From a virus: a stretch of 61,342 nucleotides of DNA. Shown piece by piece: positions 11,526 through 20,583 of the stretch. Position 1 is the stretch's first letter, and each line of letters begins with the position of its first letter. Under the pieces are notes generated by a model. It saw nothing but the letters and a program-made list of their open reading frames with translations, was not told the origin of the DNA and searched no databases. Made by a program: the position numbers and the translations under genes. Location: the IMG/VR virus record IMGVR_UViG_3300036045_000010, positions 1-61,342 of that record, one strand, 5' to 3'.

Positions 11526-11891
11526 TCACCCTCCCAGCGGGGCCGCCTGACGCCCCCGCTTCACCGCCTCCCGACGCACTTTCTCGTAGACGTCGAGCAT
11601 CACCGAGAGCATGTCCCCGTTGGTTCGCCGCTCCCGCTGGCAGAGCTCCCGAAACCGCTCGTAGGTCTCCTCGGGCATGCGTACCGACATCTGCACCGTC
11701 GGGTTGGCCTCGTGCCGGCTGCGGCGCCAGGACTTGACCACAGGCTTCCGAAACGTTTCCGGGCCCGGGACGTCGGCGGCATCGGCGGCATCCTCCAGGA
11801 TCTCCGTCTCCGGCGCCTCGAGACCCTCTTCCCCTTCAGGCGCCTTGGGATTGACGGCCTCGGCCAGGGCCTTGAAGTCGAGCTTACGCAT
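11526..11891 (-). CDS. Ribbon-helix-helix partition protein (ParG/CopG-like)
   Basis: Protein of 121 aa. An acidic, probably disordered N-terminal region (residues 15-45) is followed by a ribbon-helix-helix domain around residues 63-105: the strand VQMSVRMP, then helices ETYERFRELCQRERR and TNGDMLSVMLDVYEKV. It overlaps the end of parA by 8 nt, so the two form an operon. Small RHH proteins encoded after ParA are the centromere-binding partners and autorepressors of type Ib partition systems, the probable role here. The centromere was not found. Confidence 0.7.
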   Translation of the reverse strand: MRKLDFKALAEAVNPKAPEGEEGLEAPETEILEDAADAADVPGPETFRKPVVKSWRRSRHEANPTVQMSVRMPEETYERFRELCQRERRTNGDMLSVMLDVYEKVRREAVKRGRQAAPLGG

Positions 11892-12609
11892 GGCGAACCC
11901 CCTCGCGCTCCTTGGTTCGGGTCTTTCGCTCGGCGCTCCGCCGAGCGATCTTCAGCCATTCCAGCAGCTTCATCAGCTCCTCGGCGAAGAGCTCCGCATT
12001 GCTGATCGCCCGCGCCACGCCCGACACCTCGTTCGGATCCATGTCGTAGAGCGTGCCCCCGAGGTTGTGCAGGGAAGCGATCGCGGTCCGGGCATGCAGC
12101 TCGGTCTCGAACGCCCCCACCCGGTCTCGCACCTGGGCGTTCAACGAGCGCGCCAGGCGCGACTTCACCGCCGCCTGGGTCCGGGCGAACAGGATGCGCA
12201 CCGGAATCTCCCGGCGCGTCGCCTGGCTCTCCAGGCTCACCTGAGCCACGGTCTCGATCGCCGCTTCGGCGTCCTGCTGCTCGTCGCCCATGGGCACGAT
12301 CACCAGATCGCTGGCGCCGATCGCGAAAGCGTTGAGCCGGGTGGCCGCGCCTTCGAGATCGACGAGCACGAACGCCGCCTCTTCCGCCGCCTTCCGGAGC
12401 TCAGCCCGGATGAGCTTTTCTCCTTGGGTGGCCTGCACCTTGAGTCGCCCGGGCAGCCGGGCCTTCTCCGCCCAGGAGAGCAATCTCCCGGCCGGATCCG
12501 CATCGATCAGGATGACCTTGCGCTCGCGCGCAAGCGTGGTCGCCAAAATGATGGCAGACGTCGTTTTGCCCGCGCCCCCTTTCGAGGACGCGAAAGTAAT
12601 GATAGGCAT
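11884..12609 (-). CDS. parA: ParA-family partition ATPase
   Basis: Protein of 241 aa from MPIITFASSKGG. It has a deviant Walker A KGGAGKTT (residues 9-16), Walker A' VILIDADPAG near residue 36 and Walker B-like FVLVDLEG. There is no N-terminal DNA-binding extension, so it fits short type Ib ParA proteins, which pair with RHH partners like the one encoded next. The start at 12609 has GGAG about 12 nt upstream; the frame extends to 12639 without a ribosome site. It should position extrachromosomal DNA copies on the nucleoid at division. Confidence 0.85.
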   Translation of the reverse strand: MPIITFASSKGGAGKTTSAIILATTLARERKVILIDADPAGRLLSWAEKARLPGRLKVQATQGEKLIRAELRKAAEEAAFVLVDLEGAATRLNAFAIGASDLVIVPMGDEQQDAEAAIETVAQVSLESQATRREIPVRILFARTQAAVKSRLARSLNAQVRDRVGAFETELHARTAIASLHNLGGTLYDMDPNEVSGVARAISNAELFAEELMKLLEWLKIARRSAERKTRTKEREGVRHA

Positions 12610-12720
12610 AACGCCATTCTCCAGTTTTCCCACGAACACGCTGCTTCAACCGCCCCCGGACTGTCAACAAGAAAATCACACCGAACCCAAGCAAACCGAC
12701 CCGCCAGGAGCCTTTTTCCG

Positions 12721-14600: not shown

Positions 14601-16514
14601 ATGCGCTACCAGACCTTTGACGACACCCCGCGGACGAGCTACGAGATCGCTGTTCTGACCCCCACCCTCGACGCGGCGGCCATCCGACGCGAATACATCG
14701 AGGCCCAGACGCTCGATCCGGCTGAGGTCATCGCTTACGAGCTCGTCAAGACTGGCAAGAAGACCTCGGCCGCAACCCAGCGCGCTTATCTCGACGAGCT
14801 CTTGCCGATCCTCGCCGAGCTCGGGGTGAAGTACCTCATCGTCGGCGACACCGAGTATTTCAAGACCCTGGCGGGCGTGCCCAAGGCCGAGGCCTATCTC
14901 GGCTACGCGCTCCCCTCGGTCTTTCCCGACGGGCTCCAGGGCGCCTTCCAGGTGCTCTACGCGCCCAACTTCCGCCAGGTCTTCCACAACCCCGGCCCCA
15001 CTAGGGCGAAGATCGCCCAGGCCTTCGACGCGCTCTGGAGCCACCGTCATGGCCGCTACCGGGATCCGGGCTGCGGCATCATCTCCCATGCCGCCTACCC
15101 CACCGAGCCCGCGGACATCGCCGCCTGGCTCCAGAAGCTCCTCGACATGGACGTGGACTTGACCGCGGACATCGAGACCTTCTCGCTCAAGCATCCGACG
15201 GCGGGGATCGGCACCATCGCCTTCGCCTGGTCCAAGCACGAGGGGGTCGCCTTTCCGGTCGATCTCGGATCCAACCCGCCGGCGGTGCGCAAGCTCCTTC
15301 TGAAGTTCTTTCGGGAGTTCCAGCGCAAGCTCGTCTGGCACAACATCAGCTTCGACGTCTATGTGCTGGTCTACCAGCTCTTCATGAAGGACCTCTGCGA
15401 CACCGAGAGCCTCCTGGACGGGCTGGAGGTCCTGCTCAGGAACTGGGACGACACCCGGCTCATCGCCTATCTCGCCACCAACTCCTGCGCCGGCAACGAG
15501 CTGGGTCTCAAGGCGCAGGCCCAGGAGTTCTCCGGGAACTACGTCCAGGACGAGATCAAGGACATCGCTCGGATTCCCTTGCCCGAGCTCTTGCAATACA
15601 ATCTCGTCGACGCGCTTTCCACCTGGTTCGTCTACGAGAAGCGCTGGCCCCAGCTCGTCGCCGACGAGCAGCTCGAGATCTACGAGACGATCTTCAAGCC
15701 GGCGATCTGGGACATCATCCAGATGCAGCTCACCGGGCTGCCGCTCGACATGGACCGAGTGCGCGAGGTCAAGACTGTTCTCAACAAGGACGCCGCCAAG
15801 GCTCTCGACGCCATCCAGACGCACCCGCTCGTCGAGGAGATGACTCACATCCTCAACGTCGAGCACGTCGAGGCGCGCAACGCCGAGCTCAAGAAGAAGC
15901 GCATCAAGCTCGGCGACGAGCCCCAGACGTTCAACCCCAACTCCGGACCGCAGATGCAGCGGCTGCTCTACGAGCTCGCCGGCCTGCCCGTGATCGAACG
16001 TACCGAGACCGGCCAGCCCGGGACCGGCAAGGAGATCCTCGAGAAGCTGAAGGCCCACACCCAGAGCCAGAAGCTCCGGGATCTGCTCGACGCTCTGCTC
16101 GACCACGCGGCGGTCGACAAGATCCTCACCGCCTTTATCCCGGCCATGGAGGAGGCCACGCTCGGGCCCGACGGGGTCTACTACCTCTTCGGCAAGTTCA
16201 ACCTCGGTGGCACGGTGAGCGGAAGGCTTTGTGTGGCGGGAGACACCCAGGTGATGACCGAAGACGGGCCGATCACCATCTCGCAGCTTGTCTTGGAGGA
16301 ACGATCCTGTAAAGTGTTGACACACGAAGGACGGTTCCAGCCAATCATCGGGCACTACCGCAAGGGACGCGAGGAGATGTTCGAGGTTGAGCTGGAATCG
16401 GGGAAACGCATCACCTGCACCCTGGGACATAGATTCCTGACCACCGTGGGCTGGATGTCGCTCAAAGACATCATGAACTCTCCGACGGAGATCGAGATCT
16501 ATGAAGCTGGCTAA
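14601..16514 (+). CDS. DNA polymerase I piece A: exonuclease domain, start of polymerase domain, intein N-half
   Basis: Family A DNA polymerase (N4 gp39-like), first of four pieces, 637 aa. The 3'-5' exonuclease motifs are DLTADIETFSL (Exo I), LVWHNISFDVYVL (Exo II) and YNLVDALSTWFVY (Exo III region). Polymerase sequence begins after about residue 360 and reaches FNLGGTVSGRL, which normally continues as SSSDPNLQ. Here residue 544 is instead Cys1 of an intein: CVAGDTQVMTEDG (block A) and LGHRFLTTVGWMSLKDI (block B), ending at a stop after residue 637. The missing polymerase follows in pieces at 16671, 17949 and 19237. Activity would need trans-splicing and subunit assembly. Confidence 0.85.
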   Translation: MRYQTFDDTPRTSYEIAVLTPTLDAAAIRREYIEAQTLDPAEVIAYELVKTGKKTSAATQRAYLDELLPILAELGVKYLIVGDTEYFKTLAGVPKAEAYLGYALPSVFPDGLQGAFQVLYAPNFRQVFHNPGPTRAKIAQAFDALWSHRHGRYRDPGCGIISHAAYPTEPADIAAWLQKLLDMDVDLTADIETFSLKHPTAGIGTIAFAWSKHEGVAFPVDLGSNPPAVRKLLLKFFREFQRKLVWHNISFDVYVLVYQLFMKDLCDTESLLDGLEVLLRNWDDTRLIAYLATNSCAGNELGLKAQAQEFSGNYVQDEIKDIARIPLPELLQYNLVDALSTWFVYEKRWPQLVADEQLEIYETIFKPAIWDIIQMQLTGLPLDMDRVREVKTVLNKDAAKALDAIQTHPLVEEMTHILNVEHVEARNAELKKKRIKLGDEPQTFNPNSGPQMQRLLYELAGLPVIERTETGQPGTGKEILEKLKAHTQSQKLRDLLDALLDHAAVDKILTAFIPAMEEATLGPDGVYYLFGKFNLGGTVSGRLCVAGDTQVMTEDGPITISQLVLEERSCKVLTHEGRFQPIIGHYRKGREEMFEVELESGKRITCTLGHRFLTTVGWMSLKDIMNSPTEIEIYEAG

Positions 16515-16949
16515 ATAAACTGAGGACGGCGAGGGGAGTATCATTCCCCTCGCCCAGGCCCCCAAGCCACAATGTGCGAAGGCGTTCATATCCAAGGAGG
16601 ATTTTGACCGCCTCTACCACCAGAAAGGCGGACACCGCGAGTCGCTTCAGAAGCTGGGCGTCGGCTCGAAGTGCTTTCAGAACAGCCTGCATCGGTGGTA
16701 TCCCGACCCGGCGGAGCGGGAGCGTATCCGCGCAGGCAAGCTACGAGCGACCGACGCTGCGAAGGACGCCATCGCCCAAGCCGCCGGCTACACCCTCATA
16801 CGATTAGATTGCGCGAAGTGGAAAAACAAGAAGGCCATCTACGGGCGAGTCGAATCCGCGCTGTCCGAAATGTTGGGGTTCATGAAGTCTGGGACATCGG
16901 AGTCGCCGGCGATCATTCCTATGTCGGCAACGGGATCGTGAACCACAAC
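16230..16949 (+). other. Split mini-intein in DNA polymerase (between SGRL and SSSDPNLQ)
   Basis: The N-half starts at Cys1 (16230-16232) and ends at the stop 16512-16514 (94 residues, blocks A and B). The C-half is in the same frame but after further in-frame stops; it carries HEVWDIGVAGDHSYVGNG (block F) and IVNHN (block G), ending at Asn 16947-16949, with Ser+1 at 16950. N-half plus about 44 C-half residues is close to the size of a bare splicing domain, so the halves form a complete mini-intein. All splicing residues seen (Cys1, block B His, His-Asn, Ser+1) are intact. Confidence 0.75.
16519..16939 (+). pseudogene. Start-less frame between the intein halves; decayed endonuclease-like domain
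   Basis: A +1 frame is open for 140 codons but has no ATG, GTG or TTG until near its end. It encodes convincing protein: a helix-turn-helix-like stretch (KEDFDRLYHQKGGHRESLQK) and AGYTLIRLDC followed by WKNKKAIYGR, which loosely resembles the C-terminal end of Vsr/DUF559-type nucleases. A 10-bp hairpin (GGCGAGGGGA at 16528-16537 with 16545-16554) lies at its beginning. It overlaps the intein C-half in another frame. Probably the residue of the intein's homing domain; translation by recoding is a weaker possibility. Confidence 0.4.
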
Positions 16950-17267
16950 AGCTCGTCGGATCCCAATCTTCAGACGATTCCGGCAAACTCCAAATACGCG
17001 AAGCTGATCAAGAGCTGCTTCGTGGCCCCAAAGGGATGGCTTTTTTGCGGGTTGGACTTTAATTCGCTGGAAGACATGATCTCGGCGCTGACGACGAAAG
17101 ACCCCAACAAGCTTCTTGTTTATATTGGCTCCATTGTGTATGGTGTGAGGGTCGATGGAGCGTTGAAGTGGATCAATGAAACCGATCGCGTTCACTATCA
17201 GGGATCTGTATATACAGGCTCTGAGTTCGCAACCATGCTCCGAACCAGTGGCAGGGTTTGCGGGTAA
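16671..17267 (+). CDS. DNA polymerase I piece B: intein C-half, motif A region, extra C-terminal tail
   Basis: The frame begins with a GTG at 16671 but looks like protein only from about 16818 (another GTG), so the true start is uncertain. It holds the intein C-half to Asn at 16949, then polymerase sequence SSSDPNLQTIPANSKYAKLI and motif A with the catalytic Asp in GLDFNSLEDMISALTTKDPN. After KLLVY the sequence leaves the polymerase family and runs for about 45 residues (GVRVDGALKWINETDRV, TGSEF) to a stop. This tail is homologous to the tail of piece C. It overlaps the HNH gene by 92 nt. Confidence 0.7.
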   Translation: MLSEQPASVVSRPGGAGAYPRRQATSDRRCEGRHRPSRRLHPHTIRLREVEKQEGHLRASRIRAVRNVGVHEVWDIGVAGDHSYVGNGIVNHNSSSDPNLQTIPANSKYAKLIKSCFVAPKGWLFCGLDFNSLEDMISALTTKDPNKLLVYIGSIVYGVRVDGALKWINETDRVHYQGSVYTGSEFATMLRTSGRVCG

Positions 17268-17949
17268 ATACGAAGTCTTCCCCGATGGGCGTATCTGGAA
17301 TGTCCATCGGGAAAAATGGCAAAGTCAGTCAGATGCGGGGCCATATCTGAAGGTTCACTTGCATGACGGCCGGGCGGAGCACCAACTCTTGGTGCATCGA
17401 CTGGTCGCTATGCACTTTCTACCGAACCCGGCGAGCGCCCCGATCGTCAATCACCAGGATGGCGATAAGCACCACAATGCCGTCGGCAATCTGGAGTGGG
17501 TCTCTGAAGAGCGCAACGCGCAGCATGCGCTGGAGCTGGGACTTCGCGGAGGCTACATACCTGTCCCTCAGAAACGCGCCTTGTTGCACGCCGTCCTGAC
17601 CGAGAGCGCAACAGTTCTGGATCTCGCCCGACACACCGGGAGGCGGATGGAAACCCTCCACAGAATGCTGAGAGTCCAAGCCGATAAAGACGGCCTCACA
17701 GAGCAGTGGCAAGCCAATGCCTGGAAAACGCGCCGCAAAGCTTCAATGCGCAACCTGGCTCCCTTAAACGTCAACGCTTTGTCGCCGGATGACGTCGCCA
17801 GATTGTTTGCGCGCGCGCTGCAAGGTGAGCGCCTCATCGACCTAGCGAAGGAAGTCGATCGACATCCAGGCACAATAGGTCCTTTGCTCAAAGCCTACGG
17901 AAAGGCCAACAACATCCCGACAGATTTCCGCCGAAAGAGGGCAGCGTAA
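17176..17949 (+). CDS. HNH homing endonuclease (NUMOD4 + HNH_3 type)
   Basis: Free-standing homing endonuclease of 257 aa inserted between polymerase pieces B and C. NUMOD4-like domain: EPVAGFAGKYEVFPDGRIWN. HNH_3 domain: VHRLVAMHFLPNP then IVNHQDGDKHHNAVGNLEWV with the expected His and Asn residues, then SEERNAQHA. The C-terminal 100 residues contain helix-turn-helix-like segments (DLARHTGRR, DLAKEVDRHPGTIGPLLKAY) likely to read the target DNA. It appears intact. It probably cut an uninterrupted polymerase gene between KLLVY and GYDGHSLR and inserted there. Confidence 0.85.
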   Translation: MKPIAFTIRDLYIQALSSQPCSEPVAGFAGKYEVFPDGRIWNVHREKWQSQSDAGPYLKVHLHDGRAEHQLLVHRLVAMHFLPNPASAPIVNHQDGDKHHNAVGNLEWVSEERNAQHALELGLRGGYIPVPQKRALLHAVLTESATVLDLARHTGRRMETLHRMLRVQADKDGLTEQWQANAWKTRRKASMRNLAPLNVNALSPDDVARLFARALQGERLIDLAKEVDRHPGTIGPLLKAYGKANNIPTDFRRKRAA

Positions 17950-18224
17950 TGGTAGACATCGTCATTCCAGATGACGCGACCCTCTGCCTGGAAAGTGAGA
18001 CGAAAGTTCCCGGCTACGACGGGCATAGCCTGCGAGCGTTCAGCTACTTCCCCGAGAAGATGCCCGACATCGAAGAAGCCCCCGAAGGATCTCGCTGCTT
18101 CGAGGTCCAGATCGGTGGCAAGAAGCTCTGGCTCCACGAGACGGAGCTGGTCACCTATCTCGGCCAGGAGATGACCGGGCTCGAGTTCTGGGAGCGCTTG
18201 CATGGCGTCCGTGCTTTGGTGTAA
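17949..18224 (+). CDS. DNA polymerase I piece C: GYDGHSLRAF helix region plus tail
   Basis: Protein of 91 aa starting at an ATG overlapping the HNH stop (TAATG), so translation is coupled. After a 20-residue head (VDIVIPDDATLCLESETKV) it resumes the polymerase family with PGYDGHSLRAFSYFPEKMPDI, which normally follows motif A. A tail follows (CFEVQIGGKKLWLHETELV, TGLEFW) that matches the tail of piece B at 15 of 38 aligned positions without gaps. The next polymerase residues, around INSL, are in piece D about 1 kb away. Its own start, stop and ribosome site (AGAGGG) favour a separate subunit rather than an intron exon. Confidence 0.7.
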   Translation: MVDIVIPDDATLCLESETKVPGYDGHSLRAFSYFPEKMPDIEEAPEGSRCFEVQIGGKKLWLHETELVTYLGQEMTGLEFWERLHGVRALV

Positions 18225-18250
18225 CATCAACCCAGATCACGAATGAAGAG

Positions 18251-18416
18251 ATCCCCGCCGGGGGATGGGCGCTCTCGTAGCGCCGAAGCCGGGATCGGGC
18301 CTGCGGATCAAACAGCGGCGCACTTGTAGGTTCATGCCGTGAACCTTCAGAGGAACCCGGACGGGGACCGCAGCAGGTGAGAACCCTGCACGAAATGTCC
18401 TCCATACCAGGAGGAC
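18251..18416 (+). ncRNA. Candidate structured RNA with pseudoknot, within the polymerase locus
   Basis: No reading frame fits, but pairing is dense. Hairpins: 18251-18256 with 18261-18266; 18268-18273 with 18279-18284; 18328-18334 with 18340-18346; 18373-18377 with 18385-18389; 18397-18403 with 18410-18416. In addition CCGGG (18289-18293) can pair with CCCGG (18356-18360), and CTGCGG (18301-18306) with CCGCAG (18368-18373), which cross to form a pseudoknot. It may be a ribozyme remnant (for example of an intron) or a leader RNA. It did not match the ordered core elements of a group I intron that I could check by eye. Confidence 0.45.
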
Positions 18417-18459
18417 GGTCATCATCACACCCACCCACACCAAACCAAAGAGGCAGTTC

Positions 18460-18663
18460 GTGCTTTACGCCGTCTTCTCCCTCTGCCTGGTCGCCACCGG
18501 CGAATGCCGCAACGTCGAGCTGCCTCTGCCCGATCGAAACGTCACGCCCTACGCCTGCGCCCGCCAGGTACAGGCCTCGATCGCCACCTACCTCGCCACC
18601 CTGCCCCATTCCAGGGGCTACCGGATCGAACGCTTCGGCTGCGTTCGTGGCATGGGAGCCTGA
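18460..18663 (+). CDS. Small secreted or membrane-associated protein, 67 aa
   Basis: GTG start preceded by AGAGG 8 nt upstream. It starts MLYAVFSLCLVATGECRNVE, a short hydrophobic N-terminus, and has four Cys residues. The pattern of an early Cys, an ACARQVQ helix and a late RFGCV occurs in small phage proteins of unknown function. It is inserted between polymerase pieces C and D. Confidence 0.55.
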   Translation: MLYAVFSLCLVATGECRNVELPLPDRNVTPYACARQVQASIATYLATLPHSRGYRIERFGCVRGMGA

Positions 18664-18666
18664 ACC

Positions 18667-19233
18667 ATGCTCAACGATCCCCGCAGCCGCATGCCCCGCG
18701 AGACCGAGGTCGCCACCGAGCGCGGCTACTACGACTTCATGGATCCCGATCCCGCCACCCTCTACACCATGGAGGAGGCAGGCGTCGTCCTCTCGCGGAT
18801 TTGCCGCTTCGGCGGCCGGGGGCCGCGCTTCTACAGCGTCGCCGAGCATACCGTGCTCTGCGACAATATCGCGATCCGCCTCAACTACACCCTCGAACAA
18901 CGCCGATCGGTGTTTCTGCACGACGTGCCCGAAGCGATCGTCGGCGATGTCACGACGCCGTTGAAACGTCAGCTCCGGGACTTCGCGCCCATCGAAGAGA
19001 TCACCGCGGCTGCCTACCGCGCGCGCTACGATGTGCTCGACATCCCGGCGCTGGTGAAGAAGGTCGACCTGCTCGCTTTCTCGGTCGAGGCGCGGGATTT
19101 CTTCCCGTCTCATGGCTTCGTGCGCGACCTTCCCGCACCGCCTGTCCTGGCGGTACTGAAACCGCCTCGCTGGAGCATGGAGAAGGCGGCTCGCCAATTC
19201 GCTGCCCGAGCCCTGCGCATAAGGCTTTCCTGA
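18667..19233 (+). CDS. HD-domain phosphohydrolase (YfbR-like)
   Basis: Protein of 188 aa. HD-type metal-binding residues: His in SVAEHTVLCD, His-Asp in VFLHDVPEAIVGD, and a later Asp in the helix KKVDLLAF. Length and motif order fit YfbR-like 5'-deoxynucleotidases and related HD proteins found in phages. It probably acts on dNMPs or other nucleotides, in line with dcd, thyX and the HAD phosphatase. Its placement inside the polymerase locus is odd; it ends 3 nt before piece D. Confidence 0.75.
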   Translation: MLNDPRSRMPRETEVATERGYYDFMDPDPATLYTMEEAGVVLSRICRFGGRGPRFYSVAEHTVLCDNIAIRLNYTLEQRRSVFLHDVPEAIVGDVTTPLKRQLRDFAPIEEITAAAYRARYDVLDIPALVKKVDLLAFSVEARDFFPSHGFVRDLPAPPVLAVLKPPRWSMEKAARQFAARALRIRLS

Positions 19234-19236
19234 TCC

Positions 19237-19989
19237 ATGTTGGTCATCGACGAGATGGTCGACGGAATCCGAGAGATATCCGTGGCCGAGCACAACGTGC
19301 GGCGGATCAACTCGCTCGCCGAGAAGGCCTCTCCGCACGCCGCCCATCGCCAGGCCTCGAAGGTGCCCACTTTCTCGCTGACCTATCAGGGCACCTACTT
19401 CACCCTCATGGCCAAATGCGGCTTCACCAAGGAAGTGGCCCGACAAATCGAGACGCGCTACCACGAGCTCTACAAGGTTTCCGACGCCTGGGTGGCGGCG
19501 AAGCTCGACGAGGCCTCGCGGGTCGGTTACGTCACCGCCGCGTTCGGGCTCCGGGTCCGCACGCCTCTGCTCCACCAGGTGATCCGTGGCAATTCCCGCA
19601 CCCCCCACGAGGCCCAGCAGGAAGGCCGCACCGCCGGCAACGCCCTCGGGCAGTCCTGGTGCCTGCTCAACACCCGCTCGGGCACGGCTTTCATGCAGGA
19701 GGTCCGCTCCGGCCCCCACCGGCTCGACATTCGGTCCTGCGCCCAGATCCACGACGCGCAGTATTATCTCATCCGCGACGACATCGAGACCGTGGAGTAC
19801 GTCAACCAACGCCTAGTCGAAGCCGTGCGCTGGCAGGATCATCCCGACATCGCCCATGACGTGGTCAAGCTCGGCGGCGAGCTCTCGATCTTTCACCCGA
19901 GCTGGGCCCAGGAGTTCACCATTCCGAATGGTGCCTCCACCGAAGCGGTTTTCTCTGCGGTGAGGAAGCACATGGAGAAGTTCTCCTGA
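19237..19989 (+). CDS. DNA polymerase I piece D: motifs B and C
   Basis: C-terminal piece, 250 aa. After a 20-residue head (LVIDEMVDGIREISVAEHNV) it resumes with RRINSL, then motif B HRQASKVPTFSLTYQGT, the conserved EGRTAGNALGQSWCLLNTRS, and motif C AQIHDAQYYLIRDD with the catalytic His-Asp. The remainder (HDVVKLGGELSIFHPSW) is the usual C-terminus of this phage polymerase group. It has its own ATG but only a weak ribosome site, 3 nt after the HD gene, so coupling is likely. Together pieces A-D contain every catalytic motif of a family A polymerase. Confidence 0.8.
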   Translation: MLVIDEMVDGIREISVAEHNVRRINSLAEKASPHAAHRQASKVPTFSLTYQGTYFTLMAKCGFTKEVARQIETRYHELYKVSDAWVAAKLDEASRVGYVTAAFGLRVRTPLLHQVIRGNSRTPHEAQQEGRTAGNALGQSWCLLNTRSGTAFMQEVRSGPHRLDIRSCAQIHDAQYYLIRDDIETVEYVNQRLVEAVRWQDHPDIAHDVVKLGGELSIFHPSWAQEFTIPNGASTEAVFSAVRKHMEKFS

Positions 19990-20397: not shown

Positions 20398-20583
20398 ATG
20401 ATCGGCGAATGGATGCTCATTCTCATCCTGGTCGGCAGGGACGGTCCTGGCGTCGAGGTCGTTCCCATGAACACCGAGGCCGCCTGCAACACTGTCGTGA
20501 ACGCGTTCAGCAAGAACCCGGAGAGCATGATCGCGGCGATCTGCATCTACGATCCCATCCCTGTGAAAGGAGAGCCCACGTGA
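20398..20583 (+). CDS. Small protein with hydrophobic N-terminus, 61 aa
   Basis: Starts MIGEWMLILILVGRDGPG. Two later Cys residues (EAACNTVVNAF and AAICIYD) and the overall plan are similar to the 18460 product: hydrophobic start, Cys-bearing helix, terminal strand with Cys. Function unknown. Confidence 0.5.
   Translation: MIGEWMLILILVGRDGPGVEVVPMNTEAACNTVVNAFSKNPESMIAAICIYDPIPVKGEPT

What the first reader, a model, noticed from the sequence alone, without database searches (positions are those of the whole stretch)
14601..19989. DNA polymerase gene broken into four separately encoded pieces
Pieces at 14601-16514, 16671-17267, 17949-18224 and 19237-19989 together contain all exonuclease motifs and polymerase motifs A, B and C, in order and without apparent loss. 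The breaks are a split intein, an HNH gene, and a structured RNA-like segment with two genes. Each later piece has its own start and coupled position. Either a working polymerase assembles from one trans-splicing event plus subunit docking, or the polymerase is dead and the phage relies on another enzyme.
Basis: partly seen in the sequence, partly recalled or inferred. Interest (0 to 1): 0.92.

Follow-up and report, generated by a model that had tools for sequence, protein, structure and literature searches.

The report
DNA polymerase gene in four pieces
A phage's DNA-copying enzyme is encoded as four separate, apparently intact pieces because three mobile elements broke the gene: a split intein that should rejoin the first two pieces, and two elements of one endonuclease family that add matching end-tags which probably hold the rest together.

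Summary
The window is an N4-like phage (Schitoviridae). Its family A DNA polymerase really is cut into four co-linear pieces. All 130 alignment columns invariant in 25 uncut relatives are kept, which argues against decay, and the contig holds no other family A or B polymerase.

Break 1 is a naturally split intein with all splicing residues. An overlooked ORF lies inside it, so piece B most likely starts near GTG 16818, not 16671.

Break 2 is already known. Escherichia phages Pollock, VEc25 and AlfredRasser carry a homologous HNH gene at this exact site. The tail it adds to the upstream piece is under protein-level purifying selection and no intron family matches, contradicting the published 'intron' label.

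Break 3 is not a structured RNA (folding z = -0.95). Its tail belongs to the same family, and contigs L076 and L078 have HNH genes at this site. In the window that HNH is gone, replaced by two cargo genes.

Most likely: one protein trans-splicing event plus docking through element-encoded tails yields a working polymerase. Assembly is inferred, not shown. This is a new variant of genes-in-pieces and fractured genes, notable for three breaks, one tail family used twice, and a 91-residue gene holding only 21 polymerase residues.

The parts
14601..16229 (+). Polymerase piece A, native part: 3'-5' exonuclease domain and start of the polymerase domain, up to SGRL
   Evidence: 50% identity to N4 gp39 1-552; PF01612 and PF00476
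16230..16514 (+). N-half of split intein (starts Cys; TLGH motif), stop 16512-16514
   Evidence: TIGR01445 44.3 bits vs cut-off 24.5; best solved match is the cyanobacterial DnaE intein 1zd7
16519..16936 (+). Overlooked ORF nested in the intein (frame mod 1); coding signal about 16500-16830; no standard start codon; no known family; overlaps the C-half of the intein
   Evidence: codon log-odds; no match in Pfam, PHROGs, phages or IMG/VR
16528..16554 (+). 12-bp RNA hairpin in front of the nested ORF; an SD-like GAGGGGAG lies in the stem
   Evidence: fold z = -3.28
16818..16949 (+). C-half of split intein (ends VNHN), probable start of piece B at GTG 16818
   Evidence: TIGR01443 27.6 bits vs cut-off 15.6; frame switch at about 16820
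16950..17123 (+). Polymerase piece B, native part (motif A), SSSDPN to LLVY
   Evidence: 67% identity to N4 553-610
17124..17267 (+). Tail of piece B (element-encoded), predicted beta-beta-beta-beta-alpha
   Evidence: tail HMM built without window sequences, top hit of 1487 frames, E 1e-6; model
17248..17949 (+). HNH homing endonuclease gene (ORF open from 17176; homology from 17248), extra C-terminal HTH; stop overlaps start of piece C (TAATG)
   Evidence: 40% identity to the HNH at the same site in phage VEc25, E 7e-39; phrog_59 2e-31
17949..18011 (+). N-terminal extension of piece C
   Evidence: ungapped match to N-extensions of break-2 relatives, e.g. 4 of 20000 shuffles reach L022
18012..18074 (+). 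Polymerase piece C, native part: 21 residues GYDGHSLRAFSYFPEKMPDIE
   Evidence: all 6 invariant columns kept
18075..18224 (+). Tail of piece C (element-encoded), same family and same predicted fold as the tail of B
   Evidence: second hit of the tail HMM, E 0.0043; model; homologous tail plus HNH at the same site in L076 and L078
18225..18459 (+). Non-coding spacer; not unusually structured
   Evidence: z = -0.95; no coding signal at about 18225-18400; no Rfam match
18460..18663 (+). Cargo gene 1, 67 aa, function unknown
   Evidence: coding signal; no Pfam match
18667..19233 (+). Cargo gene 2, HD-domain deoxyribonucleoside 5'-monophosphate phosphatase
   Evidence: phrog_318 2e-35
19237..19293 (+). 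N-terminal extension of piece D
   Evidence: 7 of 14 residues shared with the D extension of L079 (same contig as L078), 1 of 100000 shuffles as good
19294..19989 (+). Polymerase piece D, native part (motifs B and C, C-terminus)
   Evidence: 64-65% identity to uncut relatives; 50 of 50 invariant columns

Best explanation
The gene is a working N4-type DNA polymerase invaded three times by homing elements. A and B are made as separate proteins, and the split intein they carry joins them (trans-splicing) into one exonuclease-plus-motif-A chain. That chain ends in a tail left by an HNH element at break 2, and C starts with the matching extension of the same element. C ends in a second tail of the same family and D starts with the extension of the second element. 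Each tail plus facing extension forms a small beta-rich docking module that holds the chain ends together, so the finished enzyme is a non-covalent complex of three chains (A-B, C, D). At break 3 the endonuclease was later lost and two ordinary phage genes took its place, while tail and extension stayed because assembly needs them. Shown: co-linear complete pieces, intact invariant residues, intein motifs, tail family at both breaks, protein-level selection on tail and extension in relatives, presence or absence of the element between near-identical polymerases. Inferred: splicing, docking, activity.
For: Complete co-linear alignment to N4 gp39. 130 of 130 columns invariant in 25 uncut relatives are kept: A 54, B 20, C 6, D 50. 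Both intein halves exceed curated cut-offs and sit exactly at SGRL|S with Cys1, TxxH, HN and Ser+1. Same-site HNH, tail and restart in phages Pollock, SP5M, AlfredRasser, VEc25 and PD205 and in IMG/VR contigs. N4 (uncut) and VEc25 (cut) polymerases are almost identical (branches 0.004 and 0.003), so cultured phages replicate with the cut form. Tail HMM: its two best hits among 1487 window frames are the ends of B and C. Tail pN/pS 0.05-0.13 in close pairs, N-extension 0.00-0.20 in the closest pairs. Break-3 site carries HNH plus tail in L076 and L078, and the D extension matches. B and C tails are predicted to fold alike. No other family A or B polymerase in the contig. Precedents: split NrdA of Aeh1 and split 43A/43B of phage 25 are active (PMC2988022).
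Against: Nothing here shows expression, splicing, docking or activity. Piece B and the nested ORF lack a clear ribosome-binding site, and the nested ORF has no standard start. Tail models have pLDDT of only about 62-81 and match nothing in the PDB. The C tail match is modest (E 0.0043). The window is a single metagenomic contig with no close relative, so dN/dS of its own pieces cannot be measured and a recent loss of function cannot be excluded. Three assembly steps in one enzyme may be inefficient.
Confidence: 0.62

Rival explanations
1. The interruptions at breaks 2 and 3 are RNA introns (as the Pollock genome paper and the Bas69 annotation assume) that splice to join the pieces as exons.
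For: The Pollock announcement calls it an intron-encoded HNH (PMC4319500); AlfredRasser annotators joined the two ORFs; in L075, L084 and L022 the insert sits cleanly between KVY and TD.
Against: No Rfam intron family matches even at relaxed thresholds in the window or seven relatives. The VEc25 insert is covered by overlapping protein-coding frames, leaving no separate ribozyme core. The tail, which would lie in the intron, is under strong amino-acid selection. The 5' flank mostly ends in C and the insert in A at the clean junction, not the U and G of group I introns.
Confidence: 0.1
2. The polymerase is dead or dying: mobile elements broke it and the phage uses a host polymerase or one in the missing part of its genome.
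For: Three breaks, unclear start of B, nested intein ORF without a start codon; the contig is 61 kb whereas relatives are about 70-78 kb, so something may be missing.
Against: 130 of 130 invariant columns kept at about 50-60% identity; open frames in all pieces with strong coding signal; no second family A or B polymerase in the contig; helicase, exonuclease and primase neighbours intact; the DNA polymerase is one of the conserved core proteins of the family (PMC7650795).
Confidence: 0.2
3. The tails are only leftover translated element sequence; the polymerase pieces reassemble by their own native contacts and tails do nothing for assembly.
For: Split enzymes can reassemble through native interfaces; tail folds are low confidence.
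Against: Tail pN/pS 0.05-0.13 in close pairs; one tail family recurs at two sites; in the window the tail of C survives although its endonuclease gene is gone.
Confidence: 0.25
4. Break 1 is a decayed contiguous intein (frameshift or assembly error), not a true split intein, so B is not made on its own.
For: No clear ribosome-binding site for B; nested ORF lacks a start codon; contig L047 has a contiguous intein one residue away with an HNH ORF in another frame.
Against: The region between the halves is strongly coding in a different frame, as in split inteins with an endonuclease gene between the halves; the nearest solved N-half is a naturally split DnaE intein.
Confidence: 0.2

Closest known systems
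HNH-interrupted DNA polymerase of N4-like coliphages (Pollock, VEc25, SP5M, AlfredRasser/Bas69, PD205) and Klebsiella phage Pylas
   Same: Same insertion site as break 2, homologous HNH gene, homologous tail and restart
   Different: They have only this one break; the window adds a split intein and a second tailed element without its endonuclease
Genes-in-pieces ribonucleotide reductase NrdA-a/MobE/NrdA-b of Aeromonas phage Aeh1
   Same: HNH gene splits an essential enzyme; the enzyme is active and assembled from two parts (PMC2988022, PMC3267527); both parts have extensions reported to be element-derived interaction domains (title of Crona 2011, not held)
   Different: Different gene, one break, and the Aeh1 tail is not detected by the tail model
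Split T4-like DNA polymerase 43A/43B of Aeromonas phages 25 and 44RR
   Same: DNA polymerase in separately translated parts that co-purify and are active (phage 25; PMC2988022)
   Different: Family B polymerase, two parts
Fractured genes with split inteins and a free-standing endonuclease between the halves (Dassa et al. 2009, known from memory and citation only)
   Same: Split intein halves on two genes with an ORF between
   Different: The nested ORF matches no family here; only one of three breaks is of this kind
Vibrio phage JA1 (N4-like) DNA polymerase split by an HNH gene
   Same: N4-like polymerase interrupted by HNH (PMC3670811)
   Different: The annotated upstream part is shorter (JA1_0040) and no tail of this family was found in the JA1 stretch

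Membership tests
Family A DNA polymerase of the N4 type | Exonuclease motifs and polymerase motifs A, B, C in order | tested here: met
   130/130 invariant columns
Split intein (trans-splicing) | N- and C-terminal splicing regions on separate ORFs with catalytic residues | tested here: met
   TIGR01445 and TIGR01443 over cut-off; stop codons between halves
Split intein (trans-splicing) | Actual ligation of exteins | not testable with these tools
   Needs expression or proteomics
Fractured gene with nested homing endonuclease | Endonuclease gene between intein halves | tested here: inconclusive
   ORF with strong coding signal but no family match
Genes-in-pieces by HNH homing element | HNH gene between separately translated parts of one enzyme, same site empty in relatives | tested here: met
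   Break 2:
Genes-in-pieces by HNH homing element | HNH gene present at break 3 in the window | tested here: not met
   No HNH remnant at 18225-19236; HNH present at this site in L076 and L078
Genes-in-pieces by HNH homing element | Parts assemble into an active enzyme through element-encoded tails | not testable with these tools
   Selection on tails fits; no biochemical test possible
Aeh1-type interaction tails | Sequence homology of tails | tested here: not met
   Tail HMM does not find the NrdA-a tail (best in locus 0.18, elsewhere)
Group I or II intron | Match to an intron covariance model | tested here: not met

The most novel reading that the evidence does not exclude
N4-like phages carry a family of HNH homing elements that bring their own split docking domain: a 40-50 residue tail for the upstream part and a matching N-terminal extension for the downstream part. 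This lets the element break an essential polymerase and still yield a working non-covalent enzyme. In this phage two such elements plus a split intein give a polymerase made from four genes, and one element has become a landing place for cargo genes.
Probability: 0.4. Interest if true: 0.8.

Novelty: new variant of a known kind. Interest (0 to 1): 0.62.

Why it matters
If it works, this would be an unusually fragmented single-subunit replicative DNA polymerase: one helix region of the fingers (21 residues) would be supplied by its own gene. It would show how selfish elements can sit in an essential gene without splicing, by supplying protein tags that reassemble the product. It also corrects an 'intron' annotation in the literature and offers two candidate natural docking pairs plus a new split intein. 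The VEc25/N4 pair, nearly identical polymerases with and without the element, makes the question directly testable in laboratory E. coli.

Tried and rejected
Structured RNA or intron at break 3: fold z = -0.95, no Rfam match, no DNA match in phages. Intein at breaks 2 and 3: tails lack intein motifs (piece C was scanned with Pfam and PHROGs only) and no conserved nucleophile follows them. HNH remnant in break 3: none. Identity of the nested intein ORF: no match. Closer relatives of the intein, of the cargo phosphatase or of piece C in IMG/VR: none found. Tail family in bacterial and archaeal genomes: one more break-2 case only. Fold search of tail models: nothing significant. Homology of Aeh1 tails: not supported. 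Paralogy of the 67-aa cargo ORF with the ORF at 20398: no BLAST hit. A co-fold of tail with facing extension was not run: the structure tool folds single chains of unchanged sequence.
Full report
What it is. The window is a 61,342-base IMG/VR virus record. Its replication genes follow the order of the N4 family (Schitoviridae): helicase, small protein, polymerase, small protein, exonuclease, primase. All close matches of the polymerase are N4-like phages.

Check of the observation. tblastn of the uncut N4, RHph_Y38 and ort11 polymerases against the window gives four co-linear segments that cover the whole enzyme: A 14601-16229, B 16950-17123, C 18012-18074 (extended matches to 18086), D from about 19288 to 19986. 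Only the residues TD at break 2 and a short loop at break 3 are replaced. After removal of the inserted parts, the window keeps every one of 130 columns that are invariant among 25 uncut relatives, including 6 of 6 in the 21-residue native part of C. The contig has no other family A match and no family B match. The pieces are therefore real and look constrained.

Break 1. The insert starts with Cys directly after SGRL and ends HN before Ser. Both halves exceed NCBIfam cut-offs, and the N-half is closest in the PDB to the naturally split DnaE intein of cyanobacteria. Stop codons separate the halves. A codon log-odds scan shows A's frame until about 16480, then frame mod 1 from 16500 to about 16820, then B's frame again. 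The nested ORF has no standard start and no known relative. A 12-bp hairpin at 16528-16554 (z = -3.28) carries a ribosome-site-like sequence in its stem, reminiscent of the hairpin that hides the mobE start in Aeh1 (cited in PMC2988022).

Break 2. Search with the foreign end of piece B found the DNA polymerases of Escherichia N4-like phages Pollock, SP5M, VEc25, AlfredRasser and PD205. In all five the polymerase is cut at the same residue, with an HNH gene homologous to the window's (40% identity to that of VEc25, E 7e-39), overlapping reading frames on both sides and a restart. The Pollock authors called this an intron. I find no intron model, the junction lacks the group I signature, and the tail is conserved as a protein: pN/pS 0.05-0.13 among close pairs with many silent changes. 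The downstream N-extension is also constrained among the closest pairs, less clearly among distant ones. N4 and VEc25 polymerases differ by tree branches of only 0.003-0.004 but one is cut and one is not; L014/L073 and L023/L057 show the same pattern. The element is thus mobile, and viable cultured phages replicate with the cut polymerase.

Break 3. The end of piece C is a second tail of the same family. An HMM built from ten tails without window sequences was run over all 1,487 reading frames of the window: the two best hits are the ends of B (E 1e-6) and C (E 0.0043). Two IMG/VR contigs, L076 and L078, carry a homologous tail plus an HNH gene at exactly the break-3 site, and the N-extension of D matches that of L079, a second copy of the L078 contig (7 of 14 residues, 1 of 100,000 shuffles). 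Hence break 3 was made by the same kind of element. In the window the HNH gene is gone without trace and replaced by a non-coding spacer, a 67-residue ORF and an HD-type dNMP phosphatase. The spacer is not unusually structured (z = -0.95).

Tails and mechanism. AlphaFold2 models of B and C, made from different alignments, give the same order of elements for both tails, four strands then a helix (pLDDT about 62-81). This is weak evidence alone and finds no PDB relative. In about 80 loci examined the tail occurs only in polymerases at these two sites. I conclude, as inference, that tail and facing extension form a docking module supplied by the element. The predicted enzyme is A-B ligated by the split intein, plus C, plus D. 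Precedents for active split enzymes exist (Aeh1 NrdA, phage 25 43A/43B; PMC2988022), though the Aeh1 tail is not detectably homologous.

Limits. One metagenomic contig, no close relative, no expression data. The start of B is unproven. Function of the assembled enzyme rests on conservation and on related phages that share break 2 only.

Novelty. Each ingredient is known in kind. New here are three breaks in one polymerase, one tail family used at two sites of one gene, an element that lost its endonuclease but kept its tags, and evidence that a published 'intron' is a two-protein gene.

Noticed in passing
window 11526-12639, minus strand: A ParA/VirC1-like ATPase followed by a ribbon-helix-helix protein, a plasmid-type partition pair, in an N4-like phage; suggests a phage-plasmid or carrier state.
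   Followed up: partly
window 17779-17895: The HNH protein has an extra C-terminal HTH (residues 202-240) that resembles the internal HTH of its relatives, as if duplicated.
   Followed up: partly
L047:3600-4500: Another N4-like polymerase has a contiguous intein one residue away from break 1, with an HNH ORF in a different frame of the same stretch.
   Followed up: no
L051:2780-3160: A distant polymerase is split at the break-3 site with only about 240 nt between the parts.
   Followed up: partly
L076:752-1900: Downstream part begins after motif B, fused in frame to the HNH gene; either a dead polymerase or an assembly error.
   Followed up: no
L079:4700-4900: A short duplication (ACGTAACGTA) breaks the frame right after FALT in the downstream part; real or sequencing error.
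   Followed up: no
L059 (AlfredRasser, MZ501049): Depositors annotated the polymerase as a joined two-part CDS, implying an intron for which no evidence was found here.
   Followed up: partly
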